Below, piece after piece: positions 707-26,525 of a DNA stretch of 64,000 nt. A program made the translations under genes and the position numbers. How positions within the stretch are numbered: the first letter of the stretch is position 1; each line of letters opens with the position of its first letter. The DNA is from Russula earlei (Eukaryota > Basidiomycota > Agaricomycetes > Russulales > Russulaceae): the NCBI GenBank assembly GCA_025769875.1, contig JAGFNK010000142.1:48646-112645 (forward strand). The letters are read 5' to 3'. Under the pieces are notes generated by a model, which saw nothing but the letters and a program-made list of their open reading frames with translations, made no database searches and had not been told where the DNA came from.

Positions 707-904
707 TTGGTTGTTATGAACCAAGGCCAGATTCTGGCTGTATAGTGTCCTATTTCACTCAAAGAGAAACCTCTCTCACTTTGCATTGTCAACACACTTC
801 TGTTTCTTGGGCTACTCCTCCTGTGGTGCAAGATATTGCTATTGCAAAGGCACTATGACACAATCAGACATCCATTTCCTAATCAGGTAATCATCGCATG
901 GCAG

Positions 905-1290
905 TAGTGCTGTCGCCGGCTCGGCTCGAAACCGTTTCGAGCCGAGCCGGAGCCGTATCTGAGCCGAGGTAAGCCATTCAATGGCTCGCGGCTCGAAACA
1001 GCGCGAGCCGTTTCGAGCCGTTTCGAGCCGTTTGAAGTGCCAGATTTGGGTATGGTTGCTCGATTTGGAGAGTTGTCAGCCACTCTTGACTCTGCGTCTG
1101 GAATCTACCTCGTCCCTTTCTGCTATCCTCAGTAGGATCCAGTTACCGTTGTGGTCCTGTACCTCATATTTTTATCTCTATATCCATCTTGACCCAAGGG
1201 TCACTCATAAACAATTGCACTGGTTCCTCAGAAACAGCTCAAGCCGTTTCGAGCCACTTTGAAGTGCCAGATTTGGATATGGTTGCTCAA
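905..1290. repeat. Left subterminal repeats of the hAT-like element
   Basis: Dense palindromic copies of TTTCGAGCCG and CGGCTCGAAA occur at 916-1030 and again near 1245. They are followed twice (1032-1080 and 1258-1300) by a related segment containing TGCCAGATTTGG. The same combination recurs at 26228-26430. Repeated short motifs near the ends are expected of hAT elements. Confidence 0.7.
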
Positions 1291-1374
1291 TTTGGAGTCG
1301 TCTGGAATCTACTGGCAGCAATCCCCCCACGCCTTGCTCACCCTCCCCATATCTGCGTAAATCATCTCTTCCTA

Positions 1375-2790
1375 CTGGAGCTCCCAAAGCCGCCGCTACC
1401 CAGCGTACCTCAAAGACTCATCAAAGACTTGTCGAGCTCCTGTCCGACCCCCAGACCCGCCCCCTCCCCGCAGAACCGCAGAACAAGGCGAAGATGACGA
1501 GATCCATCGCTACGAGACAGACGCAGGCGTGCGCATGCGCGAGCATAGGAGCACCACGGAACGCATGACCAAGGCAGAGCGCCGCCGAGCTGGGTGCCGC
1601 CGCATCACCGCTTACTGGCTCGCGGATGGCTTTCGCATGAACCTGCTTGCCAACTTTCTCAAGCGCGAGCACAATGTTGTCCCTCGTTCGTTTGATGAGG
1701 CTCTCTATGTCGTACGTTCCTCGTCGACCCCTTGTCCTTCAACTTTTCCCCCTTGCCCCCGTCCCTTGCACAGTACACGTGGGGCTGGCCACCTCTCCCA
1801 AATGTATCACCTCCCGTTGCTTCCTGGTTGCGGCCCCGCGGCTACAGTGCGCTCCTCGGTTCCCACTCCGTCGCACAGGTCTCAGGCTGAAGAAGACGGC
1901 TACCCGGGCTCATACTTCTTCCCGGGACGCGCACCCGAGGATGGATTCGTATCGCATGATGGCTATATCGCGCGGAGCTTGACGAGCGAGCCACCCATCG
2001 AACGGCCCATGCACGAGCCCGAGGAAAGCGAGGTCGACGGCGAGTCGCGTGAACGTGGCCAGCGCGTGGACACCCCTTTGCTCGCGTCCCATAGCCCCAG
2101 CCCAGCTCCTCCTTTTGTGCCAGTGGGCGAGCCCAGAACACCGGTGGCGACGTGGCCGAGATCGTGTTCTTTAAGTATGGAGTCGCTGTCTTCTTTGGAT
2201 TCCACGAGATGCAGGAGCGCAATATCCTCGAGGACGTCCATGGTGCAGGCACACTCAAAGGTGCACGTGTCGAGAGCGAATGGAAAGTTGAGGAATGTCA
2301 TTTTGCATTAAGTAATTCTGCCCCCCCCTTTCTTGGTTCAGCACTATACCTCGTCGTAGTATGATTCAACGATTGGCTATCCGCGCATTTACAACGATTT
2401 TTTCAGTGAGTTTAGCTCATCTCCTTTCCGTGGGAGAAAAAGCATTCACACTGTCTTTGGTAGCATTCAAATCCCCGTCGCACCTTCTCACGCTCTCACT
2501 CTCGCATGCGCTTGCACGTCGACACTCCTCGCACACTACGAATCGCAAGCACATACCATCCTCCAACATCCGCGCACGCAAGCCTTGCCACGCACGCGCG
2601 CACTAGCACTCTCGCGACGCGACGCGATGCCGCTCACTGGGAAACTCTTCACGTTGCGCCGCGACTTCGTGCTCGTGCGCAACGTTCTCGACGTGCCGAG
2701 TACCTTCTGGGAAGAGGCGAGCATGGGCTGGACACCGTTGGGCATAGAATGCCTGCGAGCACGAGTAAGGCGCGCTAAGTTATGCAGTGG
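1375..2790 (+). pseudogene. RMD1/DUF155-like protein, captured gene fragment
   Basis: The translated pieces match my memory of the fungal RMD1/Sif-type DUF155 family in order. They are a lead-in with EDDEIHRYETDAGVRMR, the motif ITAYWLADGFRMNLLANFL (about 1606-1660), YHLPLLPG (about 1806), AEIVFFKYGVAVFFGFHEMQ (about 2155), and LFTLRRDFVLVRNVLDVP (about 2640-2700) followed by FWEEASMG. Frame changes separate the pieces near 2130, 2300 and 2530, and the C-terminal part after 2730 is missing. Intron-like gaps remain, which suggests copying at DNA level rather than from mRNA. It lies inside the hAT-like element and cannot make a full protein. Confidence 0.7.
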
Positions 2791-2879
2791 TTCCGCTTGA
2801 GCAGCAGGGGCCATGGTCTCGACGACGACGGAGAAACATCCGTTCCATCTGTACGCGATGCGTTCGTCGTCAGCGCGAA

Positions 2880-4345
2880 CGATTTCATGTGACTGATTTG
2901 AACTCTTTGGCACTAGGATTGTGACAGATCTGAATCCACAATTCTGCCTCCAAAGAAGCCGACTATGGAGCTGCAGGAGCTGGAGATGTTGAACCGCATC
3001 CGGATGACCAATCTGCTTTAACATCGACAAGTCAACTGCTACACAGTTTGGCAAGCCGTCGACGTTGAAAGAAGACTTGTGCCTTTTTTCTTCTTGTCGA
3101 CTTTCTCCCTCCTTGGCTTGCTAATGATTGGTATCTAACATCGTGTGTAAATCTGTCGAATGGTACAAGTCCTTTCCGAACAACCACCCTGTGCATTGCG
3201 TTATCCGCTCGTCCCCATCCTCCCCTCCGCTAGCATTTGTAAACTTGGCTGACTTGTCTGCGCTTATCAGAATGACGTGCACATAATCGCTTACATGTTG
3301 CTATTCCGGATTGCTAACAAATTCCACCAAGAAGTTATCTCAGATCCCACCATACCCAATAGCTTGAATCGCTCAATTGACTTCCGGGCAGTGACGCTGG
3401 AGTATGATTGGCTATTGACCGACTGTCGTCAGGAGTGGGCAGAGCGCTTCGAACAGGATTCGGACCACTCCGGTACATGGCACCCGTCGTTTTGGCTATC
3501 TTGGACTCGTCTGATGTTGCCCCCGATCTTCTTACATTACAGATGCCGCCTGTGAGTTCCACATCAAGCTTCTTCTATTGTATGTCTCCGGCATTTGTTT
3601 TGCCAGATTCGCTGGCTCACCTGTGTTTCTTTCGCATTACAGCTACACCAATTACGCGAGGCTCGTCATGTTCTCTTTCAAGTTCCAAAATGCGTTCCAA
3701 CGGGGCCTTGAAGCCGATGATGAGGTCTTCTTCACAAGGGTGAGAGATTTCACGTTATCGTGTATTGTTGGCATGACACCGGTATTCTTCAAGAGCCTGG
3801 AGAGCGCCAAGACTGTCGTCACGGTTCTCGTCGATTCCTTGGTCCCGACAGGTTACATACATTTTGCACCAGATGGTGCATGAAACTCTGGGCCACTTTG
3901 CTCTGCGCAAGACTAACATTATTTTGTATTTGCCACGTTTGCCTCGGCGTTCGTGCTCAAGGTGCGCTGTCCCGCTTTCTATCGCCCCATGGTCTTGGTC
4001 GGAATTTTTGACTTGCATCTACTATAGCTTCTACGCCCAGAATGCTCAAGGTTTATCACCCCGGGGCTTGAAACAGAGCTCTGCCAAGTGATCGAACGCC
4101 TCATTGCCATGATCGGGTCTCCCCAAAGTGCAATTGATGAGCGCCACACACCAAAGTTGTACTCGCGCTTCCTGGCAAGCTTACTGGCGAAACATAAACA
4201 TGATGGCACGGCCCAAGGACATATGCCTCAACAGGGATCACCACCACAGCAGATGCAGACCGGTTCGAATACGCCAAGGTCCAACAACCACCACAACCAC
4301 CACAGCAACAGCAACAATGATGGCAGCAACCAGCCCTCCCGCTGC
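2880..4345 (+). pseudogene. Fungal Zn2Cys6-type transcription factor, captured middle/C-terminal fragment
   Basis: Several exon-sized pieces match the fungal-specific transcription factor region of basidiomycete regulators. The order is MELQELEMLNRIRMTNLL (2967 on), DKSTATQFGKPSTLKED (about 3026), SVEWYKSFPNNHPVHC, FHQEVISDPTIPNSLNRSID (about 3320), YARLVMFSFKFQNAFQRGLE (about 3652), ESAKTVVTVLVDSL, and ERLIAMIGSP followed by RHTPKLYSRFLASLLAKH (4090-4200). A likely intron with GT...AG ends lies near 3739-3793. The Zn2Cys6 zinc cluster is absent, so only the body of the gene was taken. The tail from 4215 turns into Gln/Pro/His-rich repeats. The exact subfamily cannot be named. Confidence 0.65.
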
Positions 4346-4728
4346 AGAACACAACCTCGTCGTTACTATCCTTTACTGTTGTGGTTGTTTCCTTGTCTCT
4401 GCATTGGCTTTCGGTGTTGTAATCGTCATTTATTGCTTTTTGAATGTATACAAGGTATCGTCAATGACTCAAATCCACATTTATAGATTTCTCTAAACGG
4501 GTTGTGTTATCTGGCTCAGCAATCGCCGTCTTATAGATATCAGAGGAGTTCCTGTCCTCGCAATTACCGAACCCACTCCTGCTACTATAACATCCCATGC
4601 CGACCTCTAAATGGATCCCTGGAGTAGTGCTGCATTTGCATTTGCAGTTGAGGCAGGGCGCGTGCTTGCCCTCGGTTTGAAGCTAACGTTCATTGGCGAC
4701 AAATATGTTGTCGATGTCGTGTTCGGGG
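4346..4728. other. Interior of the hAT-like element without a recognisable gene
   Basis: Short readings only. A stretch with a hydrophobic run at about 4365-4440 and an ATG at 4611 opening a short frame give no family match. I see nothing else. Confidence 0.4.
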
Positions 4729-5226
4729 TCATTGGTATTCCCGGTTTCCACAGGGTTGCGACTTGTGTGCAGATTGTGAGTTCGTAGATGGTGTCGACTG
4801 AGGGGTCGCAGACACGGCGGGCGTCGGTTGCGGCTTTGTATTGGAATTCGGTGCGGAGTCATGAGGCCGCGATGATCCCTGAGCCTGCCCCGACGCCGGA
4901 AATTTATTCGCCTGCATCACTTTCATCACGAACTCACGACCCTTTTTGTACACGGCCATCTACTGAGCGAGCGTGGTGTTGTACTGTTTCGCCTCCTCGG
5001 TATGCCCGGCTTGTGCAGCCCCCATTTGCCTGTTACGCATCTCGGTGATGCGTATCTCCACTTGCTTGAGTTTAGCCTGCAAATCTGCAACATCGGCATT
5101 TGCCATTTGCCCTAGATTGAGGGGTAGCGACGGAGATTGAGATGGGGGTTGAGGTTGAGGTTGTATTGGCGGTTGTACTTGGGCTGTGATGTAGTCAGTG
5201 GTTGACTTTGGGTGCCCGAGAACCAT
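4729..5226 (-). pseudogene. Unrecognised Gln/Pro-rich coiled-coil gene fragment
   Basis: On the minus strand a Gln/Pro-rich stretch is followed by a charged helical stretch beginning MANADVADLQAKLKQVEIR, then AQAGHTEEAKQYNTTLAQ. A stop at 4960 is followed in frame by KKGREFVMKVMQANKFPA and a Ser/Pro-rich tail. It could be part of a chromatin or Mediator-type protein, but I do not recognise it. It follows the Nup188 fragment in the same orientation inside the hAT-like element and may be a fourth captured piece. Confidence 0.4.
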
Positions 5227-7870
5227 GCTAGTTCCAGCAGCGCCAGAAGGATCGCTAAGCGAACACCATGAGCAGTGAGAATGATTTCCCCAGAGCGCTT
5301 CTCTTTCGCGATTGAAGCAGATATCGATGACGCAAGCGACATTACGACAGGACGAAATTTGATATCACCTTGTAAGAAAGGTGCAACTTCGACTAGAAAT
5401 ACTTGCCACGATTGACCAAGTTGGGTTGATGCATACGCTAGGGAGAGGTTGAGGTTGATGGAGAAGAGGGTATGAATAAGTTCGTCGGCACGGGCTACAG
5501 TTGTGTCCAAAGAATCAATGTTGGAAAGCTCATTCGCAACTGAAGAGGCTCGCTTGTGAAGGCAAAGTCATCCCCCAGCTCGTGCTCTCCGACCAGCTCC
5601 CTTGATTCATAGTGTTCAAGAACCAAGTCCGGAAAGTGTCCTTCGGCTTTCTCTGCAAAATCTGCATAAAGAGTCGTAAGCATTGAAGATCGCTTCGTGG
5701 AGTTCATTCGAAAACTGCTCCTCGGATTTGAGAATGCTTTCGCTAGCCTGGTAGCTTTGGGGCTTTGCTCGATGTTCCCTGGCTGACGGGGCCGGGTCCA
5801 AACCGATATCGAGTGCGATGATCCGTATTGCAAAAGCTTTGGATAGCACCCGACACGAATGAGATGAGATGCTCTCGTGGTATGCAGCACGCGGATATCC
5901 GGCCATCTCAACCAGCTCCTTGCTCTTGTACTCCGGCGCTGGGGATATTTCTTCCTTGGCAAGTGCGGCGAGCTGACTCCAGAACTCCGAATTCTTCCTG
6001 ATATTGGTTAATGTCGACTGATGATCCCACCCGCGTTGCCATACAACTGTCAGGAAACCCAAAACAGCCGAAAGCAGCTGTGGATTTGTCTCCCAGTACT
6101 TGTTCCAGTTCGCAAGCATCTCCCTAGCAGCATCGAGTGCGCTCACACGTTTACTTTTCCCTTTATCCTTAGTGGATTCCTCTTTGGGAGCCTGAAAATG
6201 GCCCACGATGAAAGGGTGACCAAGGGCAGGCTCTGCTTCAACGGCGAGCGCCATAAAACGCCATACACCTAAGCCACACGTCCAAGTTGTGGTATGGATG
6301 TCGAGCCACACCCACCAGTGCCACGACTGTTGCTTCTAGATTGGATAATTGACCAACCATGGACGGGCCGGAAAACTTCCAAGTCGACAATGATGAGCAT
6401 AGTGCGTATAATAAACGGATGGATTCCTAGTGGAACCGTGGAATCGGTAGAGGATTCTTCGACAAACCCTGCGAGGACATCGAGAGGGTCCGACTTGTGT
6501 CGTCCTCCGTCGAACGACCAACACAAGGCATACTCCAGCAAGCAAGGCCCCTCCTCTACACAAATGCGCTGCTTGAAAATCAGGGAGAGACGCAAAGCAC
6601 GGAGGTGGGATCAGAGAACAAGGTGTAGGCCAAGAAGATCGCTAAGGCGACGGGATGCACGAATCCGGCGTGAGACAACAGCGAAGCTGGTGAACATGGA
6701 GATCAGAGGCTCAACAGTGGAAGTCGTTGCCTTGGACACTACGGCCCGACTAACTATTGACAAGGGACCCTCCCTATCCGGCGGTACTTGATCGAGGACA
6801 TCGGCATACAAGCCTGACACGAGCTTCCCGAGCTCGAAACGCGTCCCCAGCTGCGCGTATTTCCACCCTATGTGCTCAACGCACACTTCGACGTGAACGA
6901 AACGCAGCGCATGAAGGAGTGCCTCCTTGATCTCAATCAAGCGAGCTTTTCCATCGTGTGGTGCAAGTAAAGTACCGGATGCTTCAGTGCCACAACGCAT
7001 GAACGAGATGGAGCAGTGCCCGCGTGGTTGCATAGTTCCCACTGCACGCTCAGCGGCCATGGCGCCACGACTGCATGGAGAGTCGAATAATGCAGTCGAT
7101 GCGCGCGCAAATAACCATATGTGCGGAGCATACTCTGGGAGTGAGAGCAGTCCTGCAAGTAGACCCATTGCCGACGTTATAAGGGCAGATTCTGGGGGTG
7201 TTCCGCTATGCTGCCGCACAGAGCGCATAAGTGCGTCCTCGAGGATGGGCATCATCAGTTGCACCAGGCCCAGCGAGTCGCCATCAGTCGTGATCCCAAC
7301 ATAGTTGCTGTTTTGGAGCGAACTGAGAACCTGTGCTGCGAGGACTTGATTGTCTGATATGACGGCACAAAGCAAGTTGAGTGTGGCGGCCACAACCGAA
7401 CCATCTCCATCAGGTTCAAGTTCAAGTCCAATATCTTCTAGGCAAAGAACTACGGGTGGTTGCGAGGCCATGCGATTGACAGGAGCACTTGCAACAGGGG
7501 CAGATAAACCTGGTATTAGGTGTTTGCGTCGGACATAGCCATATAGGACCTTGACAGGAGTTTCCATCCAGAGTGCTCACACTGCCATACGATGATGAAA
7601 TCCTCCCCATCCTGACTAAGGAGACGACCGGTCGACCGGGCAGGGAGAATGGAATGGTTCTACCTGGGAGCTTTAATGGCCGCGAATTGGTGGAGGTAGG
7701 GCCCAACGCTTTGGAAGATAGCATATCGCTCGGGAACCTTCTCGTATAGCGCTTGTGACCCTGTGCACGCACTTGTGGGTAAAATTTGTGTGTACGTCGG
7801 CAGATTCTCGAAGAAATATGAAACTTCTTGAGCACATTGTGCCCGTGCCTCCATCAGCGGAGGCTGAGTA
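5112..7870 (-). pseudogene. Nucleoporin Nup188-like, captured internal fragment
   Basis: Minus-strand pieces follow the order of the scaffold nucleoporin Nup188. They are LPTYTQILPTSACTGSQALY then EKVPERYAIFQ (about 7820-7730), CLEDIGLELEPDGDGSVV (about 7440), QLMMPILEDALMRS (about 7260), ALLHALRFVHVEVCVEHIGW (about 6920-6860), KATTSTVEPLISMFTS, WRFMALAVEAEPALGHPF (about 6250), SILKSEEQFSNELHEAIFN, LVGEHELGDDFAFTSEPL (about 5580) and SLAYASTQLGQSWQVFLVEV (about 5440). About the middle 800 residues of a protein usually near 2000 are represented, broken by frameshifts and intron-like gaps. The collinearity of so many motifs makes the call firm. It cannot encode a working pore subunit. Confidence 0.75.
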
Positions 7871-9290
7871 GGCTGTGGTGGTCATGCCAGATTAGGCAGT
7901 GAGGGCGCCTGCTGTGGCGGGTTTGGTTTAGAGGGAAGGGGACGATTCTGCACCAATGCGGGCACAAGTTCTGGTGTGGGTTGAGTGAGATCAATGACAT
8001 CTGATTCTGGTGGTTCGAGGGAAGGAGGTTTCGGTGGAGAGGCTTGAGGCGCCGGGGAGGCTAAGGCAGAGGATGGTGGAGCAGGGGCGGGGGCTGGAGG
8101 GACCAAGGGACTAGATTGTGGGATTGTTTTTTTTTTCAGTGGCCAAGGCCGGGGACGCGGTCTGTGAGGGAAGTTTTACAAATTTCGGGCCAGGTAAGCG
8201 TTGCTCAGCAGGAGTTTCTGCAGGATGCTTGGCGGGGATTGTAGGTGGGACTGCGGCTGAGATAGAACCATGAGTGGCCTTATGGAGTGGGAGCGATGGG
8301 TCAAGGCTGTATCTGTGGGTTTAGGTGACGACGTAAAGCCCGATAGTAGGACGGTGTGATGAGGGCGGGTAGGAAACCATGGTGGTAATCACGCATCTGA
8401 GATCTATTGGATGAGATGCTGTAAGTGAGGGGGAGGTGATGTGACGCTGACAAGGAGTGACGCAGAGTGGAAAACAGCTCCGAGAATTTGGGAGAGGGGT
8501 GGACAAGCAGCATTGAACAGTTGATGTCGTGCTGTCAAGGGATCATAAGTCCATAAAGTTCCGCACGGCGAGGGCAGTGCATTCACCTTCAGCTCAGCAG
8601 GAACCGTCGTCCATGTGAGGTTGTCAAGAGCGGGTGAGGAATTCCAATACAGGTGCTTGGCATCGTCCAGCCGTGAAGTGCCATAAGTAACAAGAAAACT
8701 TATCTTTAGGCTTGTCGCGAGACTCGTTCAGAGTTAGGGGATGTAGGGGCTTCTGATTGACACCATTCTTGAGGTTGTCAAACATCTGGCAATACTAAGG
8801 ACGCATGCATCGAGACAGACAGAAATCCAGATACATCTATTGCCGCAGCATAGCCCTCAAGTGCAGCCATCCCCAAGGACCCACCGGTGACAGTGCGACC
8901 TATTGTGAGTCTCGTCGGGTCTTCCTTCAGCTCATCAGGCATGCCCGAAGCGAAGAAATGATTGATGAAAGGCGGGGACCCATGGCGATCGGGGGACCCT
9001 TATGTGATGATTCTGAGGCGGAGTTGCTGAGAAGATGGAAGATTTAAGAGCGAATTCGAAAGCTGGATAGGAAACAGAGCTATACATGTGGGGAGGAAGT
9101 ACCTCCTGCAAGACGATGAAGGAGTTGAGGCAGGTAGACGTGAAGGACGTGGTGCCATTCCGATGCGAGGGTATTAGGTAAGGCGAGCAGAGCCAACGTC
9201 ACCTACAAGAGCATTACAGTGGCAAGTGGCAACAAGAGTTCTTTGGTGTTCTAAAAATGGAAAGTAGATCCAAAAGTAGACATGGCCCAA
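7871..9290 (-). other. Pro-rich reading and unassigned right interior of the hAT-like element
   Basis: A minus-strand Pro/Ala/Ser-rich reading (8106-7882, containing PPESDVIDLTQPTPELVPAL) sits upstream of the Nup188 piece and may belong to its donor locus or to another captured gene. From 8110 to 9290 only short readings occur, and none matches a family I know. Confidence 0.35.
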
Positions 9291-9405
9291 ATGGGACGGC
9301 TCAAATCGGCTCAAGCCGCAAGCCATGGCTTGGCTCGGTCCGGCTCACCCAATCTGGCCAAGCCGTTGCTGAGCCGAACCGAGCCGAGCCGAGCCGAGCC
9401 GTGAC
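9290..9405. repeat. Right subterminal repeats of the hAT-like element
   Basis: Copies of CGGCTCAAATCGGCTC, GGCTCGG and a run of GAGCC repeats end just inside the right TIR. They mirror the left subterminal block and support this as the true right end. Confidence 0.7.
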
Positions 9406-10112
9406 AGCACTACATGGCAGCCACATGGCCACTCAGCCACCAGGGACCTGAAACAGCGGCATGGACTCCTACAACTCATTGCATAACTCATATGATGTCA
9501 TTTAGCTCCAATGACATCATGGCTGACTGAGCAACTCCACAATGACCTCATGGGCTCACTAAGCGCTCCACAGTGACATCATAAAGATGTCATCGCTCCA
9601 CAATGATCAGCAATATGCTCAGTAAGCCTGAAACTTGACACAAGCAAGTTTATGCCCCTGTAGTCCTATTGGATGGTACCGAAGAGTCTAGAATAGTTCC
9701 AGTCCTTTGTAATCAACCCTGTACACAGTATATAAGCCCCAATGTAGCATGGCAGTTGTCAGACTGTCCATTTGTGATACTCTCATCTTCCTGGGTACTC
9801 CCCTGTGACCACTCAGTTTAAAGTCTTCCCTTGTCCTCAAGGTACACTTCAACGACCACCTTGTCTAAAGCCCCCTTGCTGCACTGGCCTCCAACCTTCA
9901 CCTCTGCCTCCAGCAACATCTACCAGTCCCCTTCTGGTACCTCCTTGTCATTTGGCTTGTCCTCTTGTTCAACGCTGTCTATGCCGCGTACCATCTGTTC
10001 CAACCCTTGCCCACCTGCTCCTGAGTCCTTAGTGATCAGCAGTACATGTCTTGACATTGGTGGTGGTAGTGGTGGCTGGGTGGTGTAGGGCATATACTGC
10101 ATGGGCTCCAGG

Positions 10113-25903: not shown

Positions 25904-26227
25904 TGGATGGTACGCAATGAAAGAGGTTGTGAATCGGTGATTAAGGGGTGCTAGAGCTGATTAGGAGAAATGAGGCGAGCGCTGCCGTTTTGGTGTGCAG
26001 CGCCAGCCCGTGCCACACACCGTTCCATATCCGTCTCAATTACTCACTCACCAATTGTGGGAGATTATTGACTATCGTAGGTATCTACGTAGGACAGTCT
26101 TTATGTTCAAGGTTTAAGGCTATCAGATGGAGTCTGTATGAGGAGATGTTGCGGCGGAAGGTTTGAACAAGACCCTGCCTGTCCATTGCCTTAAAGTGTG
26201 GGTGTCAGTCGTTTCCCTATATACGAA
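25904..26227. other. Intergenic, 3' side of the kinase gene
   Basis: I see no gene or repeat. It would hold the kinase 3' untranslated region. Confidence 0.4.
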
Positions 26228-26430
26228 ACGGTTTCGAGCCGAGCCGGAGACGTTCCTGAGCCGAGGTAAGCCGTTCAACGGCTCGCGGCTCGAAACCGCT
26301 CAAAACAGTGCGAGCCGTTTCGAGCCATTTTGAAGTGCCCAATTTGGAGTTCTGGTTCTGAAGTGCCAGATTTGGATATGGTTGCTCAATTTGGAGAGTT
26401 GTCTGCCACTCTGCCTATTCCTGCAATCTA
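26228..26430. repeat. Relic related to the hAT-like left end
   Basis: GGTTTCGAGCCGAGCCGGAG, GGCTCGCGGCTCGAAACCG and the following TGCCAGATTTGGATATGG segment match 916-1080 and 1258-1300. The terminal TAGTGCTGTC and a target duplication are not seen, so this is an end-proximal fragment of the same family. Confidence 0.65.
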
Positions 26431-26525
26431 CCTTGCTCCTTGGCTCCTGAGCCAACATTGCCATCCTCAACAACAGCATTCACAACGGGCAGGAAGGGAT
26501 AAGTCAACTGTGCTTATAGTCAACT

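What the first reader, a model, noticed from the sequence alone, without database searches (positions are those of the whole stretch)
905..9413. 8.5-kb hAT-like element carrying pieces of several unrelated host genes
Seen: 10-bp perfect (about 22-bp imperfect) terminal inverted repeats, an 8-bp target duplication, an empty site in two sister LTRs, subterminal GAGCCG repeats, no transposase. Inside lie collinear fragments of an RMD1/DUF155-like gene (+), a fungal transcription factor (+), Nup188 (-), and possibly a coiled-coil gene (-). Known: gene-capturing transposons (Pack-MULEs, Helitrons) are described mainly in plants. A fungal hAT-like carrier with several genes at once would be unusual. 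Inference: intron-like gaps mean capture at DNA level, perhaps by abortive gap repair.
Basis: partly seen in the sequence, partly recalled or inferred. Interest (0 to 1): 0.88.

Follow-up and report, generated by a model that had tools for sequence, protein, structure and literature searches.

The report
Mushroom jumping gene hoarding host-gene pieces
In the mushroom Russula earlei, a family of jumping DNA elements has repeatedly copied pieces of ordinary host genes, introns included, between its own ends, and the copy studied here is about nine-tenths host-gene sequence taken from four different genes; this kind of gene hoarding is known mostly from plants.

Summary
Bases 905-9412 are a complete non-autonomous hAT-type transposon: TAGTGCTGTC ends, CATGGCAG 8-bp target duplication, three empty sister sites. 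The host is Russula earlei. By similarity to host loci, 90% of the element is host-derived: RMD1/DUF155 (+), a fungal transcription factor (+), an unnamed gene (-), and a Nup188 piece (-) sitting inside the unnamed gene. Source-like loci lie on different contigs, so it is not one trapped block. Of 25 loci that I paired by distance, 18 have exact 8-bp duplications, five none. The left end occurs at 59 places, control 0. The composite itself moves: near-identical copies sit at different sites. A 10.1-kb relative has the same ends, a hAT dimerisation domain and its own captured pieces (RMD1, Rpn10, histidine kinase). Other members carry a second DUF155 gene and a protein kinase. Introns are retained, so capture was from DNA. 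Captured copies have lost coding constraint and decay at CpG; parental genes do not. Fungal hAT transduplication is already known (histone H3, from transcript). Multi-gene, nested, genomic capture in a basidiomycete is a new variant. The capture mechanism (template-switching repair) is inferred.

The parts
897..904 (.). left target-site duplication CATGGCAG
905..914 (+). left terminal inverted repeat TAGTGCTGTC (perfect 10 bp, imperfect to about 22 bp)
905..1208 (+). left terminal and subterminal region with GAGCCG repeats; shared with same-ended elements
1239..1304 (+). second copy of the left subterminal region (1239-1297 is 92% identical to 1013-1070), just before the RMD1 piece; the terminal repeat itself is not included
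1371..2725 (+). captured RMD1/RMND1-like (DUF155) gene fragment, introns retained; similarity may start near 1324
   Evidence: 95.2% of aligned bases identical to C119 (L024), largest gap 18 bp; C119 is DUF155
2731..2891 (.). short unit of unknown origin, shared at least in part with C284, C261, C54, C211 and C97
2892..4370 (+). captured fungal transcription-factor gene (PF04082), main part
   Evidence: 89.9% identical to C480 (L030); domain at C480
4371..4611 (+). captured transcription-factor gene, 3' part, joined after a gap of about 760 bp relative to C480
   Evidence: matches C35 and C552
5214..7857 (-). captured internal Nup188 fragment, placed inside the unnamed gene; frameshifted
   Evidence: 95.1% identical to C123; Nup188 domain at C123; junctions; decay
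7858..9172 (-). captured unnamed gene, 5' part
   Evidence: matches C35 and C552, contiguous there with 4612-5213
9220..9412 (+). right subterminal region with GAGCCG repeats and right end
9403..9412 (-). right terminal inverted repeat GACAGCACTA
9413..9420 (.). right target-site duplication CATGGCAG

Best explanation
This is a non-autonomous hAT element of a large gene-capturing family in Russula earlei, functionally a fungal counterpart of plant Pack-TYPE elements. Shown: it is a complete unit with hAT-type ends and an 8-bp duplication; near-identical composites sit at several different sites; its interior comes from four host genes at different loci; the Nup188 piece lies inside a previously or simultaneously captured gene; capture was from genomic DNA; the captured Nup188 copy no longer evolves as a gene. 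Inferred: it is moved in trans by a transposase like that in the same-ended 10.1-kb element at C19. Inferred: host DNA enters when a break in the element (after excision or fork stalling) is repaired by synthesis that switches template to another locus and back, so that each event inserts a filler copy and leaves the donor gene intact. Rounds of this, followed by transposition, build the nested mosaics.
For: Ends and target duplication; exact 8-bp duplications at 18 of 25 loci that I paired by distance; 59 left ends, control 0. Group 1 composites: C142 (CATGGCAG), C788 (7 bp), and C366, C861, C389, C735 and C223 seen with one end only, with differing flanks except C861/C389, which look like two halves of one insertion. 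Group 2: C261, C367 and C18 with exact duplications, C962 and C1304 with one end only, all flanks different. Identity 99.4% for W with C788 and C366, 98.8-99.0% for C261 with C18 and C367. hAT dimerisation domain between the same ends at C19, with target duplication CATGGACG. Separate source-like loci. Unnamed gene uninterrupted at C35/C552, with the Nup188 piece inserted between GGGT and CGG without loss or duplication of target bases, and the same junctions in W, C788 and C261. Gaps of at most 21 bp between W and four source-like loci; an intron retained in the C19 and C1032 kinase pieces. Junction overlaps of 0-4 bp at five junctions. No internal copy of the terminal repeats found at gene junctions of W, C788, C284, C19 or C1032. 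Parental Nup188 changes favour third codon positions (7, 6, 23); element changes do not (29, 17, 17), and the element copy has frameshifts.
Against: Transposition and capture were not observed. Trans-mobilisation by the C19-type protein is inferred from shared ends only; whether that transposase is intact was not established. Five of 25 loci (C110, C22, C20, C88, C166) have no matching duplication; their ends may not belong together. C788 has 7 bp and C186 has 7 of 8. Junction overlaps of 0-4 bp do not separate template switching from end joining. W and C788 have a second left-subterminal piece just before the RMD1 fragment, and C261 has a right-subterminal remnant near its left end, as a tandem re-mobilisation model could leave. 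C54 lacks the Nup188 piece but also about 30 bp around that point, so it is not a clean pre-insertion state.
Confidence: 0.86

Rival explanations
1. Capture by tandem insertion and re-mobilisation: two same-family elements insert on either side of host DNA and the outermost ends move everything between them, as proposed for plant Pack-CACTA and other Pack-TYPE elements.
For: Proposed in print for Pack-TYPE elements including hAT (PMC8903248, passages). W and C788 keep a second left-subterminal piece (w1239-1304) some 20-70 bp before the RMD1 fragment, and C261 keeps a 68-bp right-subterminal remnant at 247-314, just inside its left end.
Against: No end sequence was found next to the RMD1 right junction or at the transcription-factor, unnamed-gene and Nup188 junctions in W, nor inside C284, C19 or C1032 (six elements, 220-bp left and 200-bp right ends). 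The Nup188 piece is inserted into another captured gene without any end sequence.
Confidence: 0.15
2. Capture by end joining of stray DNA fragments (filler DNA) at a break in the element, without template switching.
For: Junction overlaps are only 0-4 bp and the Nup188 insertion caused no loss of flanking bases.
Against: Captured pieces are up to 2.65 kb, collinear with the parental gene, and the parental loci persist; this is compatible with either route, so the evidence is weak both ways.
Confidence: 0.25
3. One genomic block, with these genes adjacent at an ancestral locus, trapped between two hAT ends.
For: None found beyond the fact that the pieces are adjacent in the element.
Against: Source-like loci are on different contigs, three of four genes run on past the capture points, and one piece is nested inside another. 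Other members carry different gene sets. Contigs are short, so distant linkage of the donors is not excluded.
Confidence: 0.02
4. Capture of transcripts or retrocopies, as reported for histone H3 in Dothideomycetes hAT elements.
For: Published precedent (PMC6710886, passages).
Against: Introns are kept: kinase intron GTGAGT...ATCAG in C19 and C1032; the four aligned pieces of W show no gap above 21 bp against their source-like loci. The transcription-factor tail after the 760-bp gap was not part of that alignment.
Confidence: 0.02

Closest known systems
Pack-TYPE elements of plants (Pack-MULE, Pack-CACTA, Pack-hAT)
   Same: Non-autonomous TIR elements with captured coding DNA, in all main DNA-transposon superfamilies including hAT (PMC8903248, passages). 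Chimeras of several loci are known there (recalled).
   Different: Basidiomycete; one captured gene nested inside another; a relative bearing a hAT transposase domain also carries captured pieces; no terminal-repeat remnants at the gene junctions checked.
hAT transduplication of histone H3 in Pyrenophora tritici-repentis and Pseudocercospora fijiensis
   Same: Fungal hAT, 8-bp duplications, gene carried between the ends and amplified, also in an element with transposase (PMC3538342 and PMC6710886, passages).
   Different: There one known host gene, captured as transcript, in ascomycetes, with RIP damage in P. fijiensis. Here several unrelated genes, genomic with introns, and CpG-biased decay.
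Pack-TIRs of animals
   Same: TIR elements with host filler; [quoted passage not shown] a hAT example in frogs; short microhomology (PMC8277862, passages).
   Different: The passages that I saw do not mention several donors in one element; here there are four.
Helitrons of Pleurotus ostreatus
   Same: Basidiomycete transposons carrying extra genes.
   Different: Rolling-circle, no target duplication; [quoted passage not shown]

Membership tests
hAT superfamily | short terminal inverted repeats | tested here: met
   perfect 10 bp at both ends
hAT superfamily | 8-bp target-site duplication | tested here: met
   window element exact; of 25 loci paired, 18 exact, one of 7 bp, one 7 of 8, five none
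hAT superfamily | hAT transposase (C-terminal dimerisation domain) in same-ended elements | tested here: met
   C19 element, PF05699, 47.1 bits against cut-off 21.4; further matches near same ends at C1366, C110, C122, C22 and C20
hAT superfamily | own transposase in the window element | tested here: not met
   so non-autonomous, which the superfamily allows
hAT superfamily | Ac-type duplication consensus nTnnnnAn (recalled; not universal) | tested here: not met
   T at position 2 in 2 of 15 and A at position 7 in 3 of 15 exact duplications
Pack-TYPE element | host gene fragments between the ends of a non-autonomous TIR element | tested here: met
   7636 of 8508 bases match four host loci
Pack-TYPE element | parental copies elsewhere in the genome | tested here: met
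   C119, C480 family, C35/C552, C123
Pack-TYPE element | mobility of the composite | tested here: met
   near-identical copies at different sites, four with exact duplications (C142, C261, C367, C18) and one with 7 bp; movement itself not observed
Helitron | no terminal inverted repeats and no target duplication | tested here: not met
   both are present
Starship (captain tyrosine recombinase) | captain gene at one end | not tested
   not searched for; the ends and duplication fit hAT

The most novel reading that the evidence does not exclude
The family is a serial gene-trapping machine whose host-gene cargo is kept because it serves the element: methylated, antisense-arranged copies of conserved genes (Nup188, Rpn10, RMD1, histidine kinase) would yield small RNAs or mimic host genes, so that silencing the element would endanger essential genes.
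Probability: 0.08. Interest if true: 0.9.

Novelty: new variant of a known kind. Interest (0 to 1): 0.7.

Why it matters
In the fungal hAT papers of which I read passages, capture concerns histone H3, taken from a transcript, and Pleurotus Helitrons are said not to tend to capture host genes. Here one hAT family carries pieces of eight host-type genes among seven elements examined, up to 90% of an element. That gives a fungal system, outside plants, in which the rate, mechanism and silencing consequences of genomic gene capture can be measured, with layers of different age and intact parental genes in the same genome. It may also mislead gene annotation: a predicted R. earlei protein related to the captured unnamed gene is on contig C366, which holds a copy of this element (its exact position was not checked).

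Tried and rejected
Considered and rejected: one trapped genomic block (separate loci and nesting); transcript capture (introns kept); Helitron (ends and duplication); RIP as the main cause of decay (CpG, not CpA). The 170-bp gap between the C19 and C75 kinase first looked like a spliced intron; it is a deletion that also removes coding sequence, while the next intron is retained. C54 was first noted as a pre-Nup188 stage; the junction alignment shows about 30 bp missing at that point, so this is left open. C21 was fetched as the kinase source but also matches the transcription-factor tail, so it is probably another element copy; the kinase source is not located. First Pfam attempt on one frame of 1500-3400 gave nothing.

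Led nowhere: literature on Russula earlei elements (one paper, on species limits; one review; listings only). Searches behind statements on print: (PMC open-licence library only).

Full report
WHAT IS THERE. Bases 905-9412 of the window are bounded by TAGTGCTGTC and GACAGCACTA, each found once in the window, and by CATGGCAG on both sides. The insertion split a repeat that has three other copies in the window; each runs through the site once, with 1, 1 and 2 differences in the octamer. The ends carry 10 and 8 GAGCCG/CGGCTC motifs, 1061-9289 none, the rest of the window 18. The element has no transposase by three checks: no PF05699 match listed in C142 (150 of 260 candidates scored), no Pfam family on its minus strand, and no tblastn match of 13 frames from the C19 transposase region, which also miss C788, C284, C1032 and C261.

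WHERE IT IS FROM. The assembly has 66,585,037 bases in 1374 contigs. Three of 14 homologous proteins are named Russula earlei and lie on contigs of 144028, 53161 and 281494 bases, the lengths of C87, C366 and C18. Some pairs of contigs have identical 30-bp flanks at the element (C1003/C462, C129/C1277, C376/C182, C979/C178), and C35/C552 are 99.3% identical over 4.3 kb. Both haplotypes therefore seem partly present, so copy counts may be up to twofold high.

THE FAMILY. A 28-base left-end pattern occurs at 59 places within 3 mismatches (22 exact) and its reversed control at 0. A 22-base right-end pattern gives 101 places, control 0, but the looser ones ending in CACAA or CACTT may be another family. 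I paired both ends at 25 loci by distance: 18 have exact 8-bp duplications, C788 has 7 bp, C186 7 of 8, and C110, C22, C20, C88 and C166 none. A further pair, C861 (left) and C389 (right), both cut at contig ends, share GGTTTGAG; I paired them by that octamer, so I leave them out of the count.

TWO COMPOSITE GROUPS. Group 1 (C142, C788, C366, C861, C389, C735, C223): W against C788 is 8429 of 8481 aligned bases identical, W against C366 8202 of 8254. Group 2 (C261, C962, C367, C18, C1304): 9.25 kb in C261, about 90% identical to W over the shared 4.4 kb. C261 is 98.8% identical to C18 and 99.0% to C367 over 6.2 kb. C142, C261, C367 and C18 have exact duplications of different sequence and C788 one of 7 bp. 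For C366, C735, C223, C962 and C1304 only one end was seen; their flanking octamers match no other end tested. So the composite itself is the mobile unit.

THE CARGO OF THE WINDOW ELEMENT. Similarity to host loci covers 7636 of 8508 bases: RMD1/DUF155 as at C119 (DUF155, 100.6 bits, cut-off 27), a transcription factor of the C480 type (Fungal_trans, 32.2 bits, cut-off 23), an unnamed gene as at C35/C552, and an internal piece of Nup188 as at C123 (N-terminal subdomain III 28.8 bits, cut-off 24.3; the C-terminal domain at 17.1 bits is under its cut-off of 25.4). Identity of aligned bases: RMD1 1283/1347, Nup188 2512/2642, unnamed gene 1781/1905, transcription factor (w2892-4370) 1322/1470. The largest gaps are 18, 21, 9 and 15 bp. 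The transcription factor belongs to a host family: a 1.4-kb piece of it has 40 matches, 23 of them spanning most of it at the top of the list, so C480 need not be the exact donor. The Nup188 piece lies between GGGT and CGG of the unnamed gene, which is uninterrupted at C35. No target base is lost or doubled, and the junctions are the same in W, C788 and C261. The nesting means that Nup188 entered after, or together with, the unnamed gene.

OTHER MEMBERS CARRY OTHER GENES. C284 (7,325 bp, CAGGAGGG) carries transcription-factor pieces, Rpn10 (84% over 1.1 kb to C541; its own VWA match is under the cut-off), the HAMP part of a histidine kinase and a second DUF155 gene. C19 (10,120 bp, CATGGACG) carries a hAT dimerisation domain on the opposite strand, RMD1, Rpn10 and the HATPase part of the same kinase. 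C1032 (6,552 bp, AAATGGAT) carries RMD1, a protein kinase piece, Rpn10 and the histidine kinase. C178 (3,467 bp, GATCACTG) has a weak match to 3-dehydroquinate synthase (23.9 bits, cut-off 24.2). Source-like loci: Rpn10 at C541 (VWA and UIM), histidine kinase at C75 (HAMP, HisKA, HATPase_c), second DUF155 at C243. The donor of the protein kinase piece was not located. In all, eight host-type genes are supported plus one weak, among seven elements read in full (W, C788, C284, C19, C1032, C261, C178).

DNA, NOT TRANSCRIPT. A histidine-kinase intron beginning GTGAGT and ending ATCAG is retained in C19 and C1032, and no intron-sized gap separates the four aligned pieces of W from their source-like loci.

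FATE OF THE CAPTURED PIECES. C123 keeps a 1266-codon open frame. Within it the W copy has 11 indels, 7 of them not multiples of three, and the C261 copy 8. By three-way comparison within that frame, changes on the source branch fall 7, 6, 23 on codon positions, W changes 29, 17, 17 and C261 changes 25, 24, 29. Over three genes (Nup188 and unnamed gene with C261, RMD1 with C97 as second copy), C-to-T or G-to-A at CpG: source 6/648, W 60/775, second copy 75/789; at CpA 3/752, 12/690, 12/688; elsewhere 25/1347, 21/1354, 40/1378. This is the mark expected of CpG methylation in the elements, not of RIP (interpretation). Branch lengths differ between source and copies, so the within-branch ratios are the fair comparison.

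HOW IT MAY WORK. Shown: ends, duplications, spread of the composite, separate DNA donors, nesting, loss of constraint. Inferred: trans-mobilisation by a C19-type transposase, and capture by repair synthesis with template switching. Overlaps at five junctions (unnamed|Nup188, Nup188|unnamed, Rpn10|kinase, kinase|DUF155, factor|unnamed) are 0, 2, 4, 2 and 0-1 bp, too short to decide. No internal terminal repeats mark the gene junctions in W, C788, C284, C19 or C1032. But W and C788 have a second left-subterminal piece just before the RMD1 fragment, and C261 a right-subterminal remnant at 247-314, so tandem re-mobilisation may have acted at the left side.

COMPARISON WITH PRINT. Gene capture by hAT elements in fungi is published for histone H3 in the papers found (PMC3538342 and PMC6710886, passages read); there a transcript was captured. 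Pack-TYPE elements of plants (PMC8903248, passages) and Pack-TIRs of animals (PMC8277862, passages) are the closest kinds. Helitrons of Pleurotus are said not to tend to capture host genes (PMC4289320, passages). My searches covered an open-licence library only, and in their listings I saw no report of a multi-gene hAT family in a basidiomycete.

Noticed in passing
window 26224-26441: A second left-subterminal-like stretch of this family (77% to 927-1118, one 38-bp stretch identical to 1260-1297); no exact TAGTGCTGTC end is there, so perhaps a decayed relative.
   Followed up: no
L030, L112, L113 (C480:7056-17566) and places listed: The transcription-factor gene is an expanded host family (40 matches to a 1.4-kb piece); at C480 a NACHT (NPHP3_N) and WD40 gene follows, and copies on C450, C480 and C910 are spaced 15-19 kb, suggesting repeated clusters.
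   Followed up: partly
captured Nup188, RMD1 and unnamed-gene pieces in W, C261 and C97: CpG-specific decay in the captured copies but not in the parental genes.
   Followed up: partly
L025 (C87:94908-99456): The unnamed gene and the transcription factor are joined in inverted order compared with W, a further rearranged composite.
   Followed up: no
L051/L012 (C261 element positions 247-314): A right-end subterminal remnant just inside the left end, a possible trace of tandem insertion and re-mobilisation.
   Followed up: no
contigs listed: Right-end-like sites ending GACAGCACAA or GACAGCACTT recur; perhaps one or two sister hAT families with slightly different ends.
   Followed up: no
L129 (C178:28843-32249): A 3.5-kb same-ended element with a weak 3-dehydroquinate synthase match and a 0.75-kb stretch shared with C19 at 92%.
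   Followed up: partly
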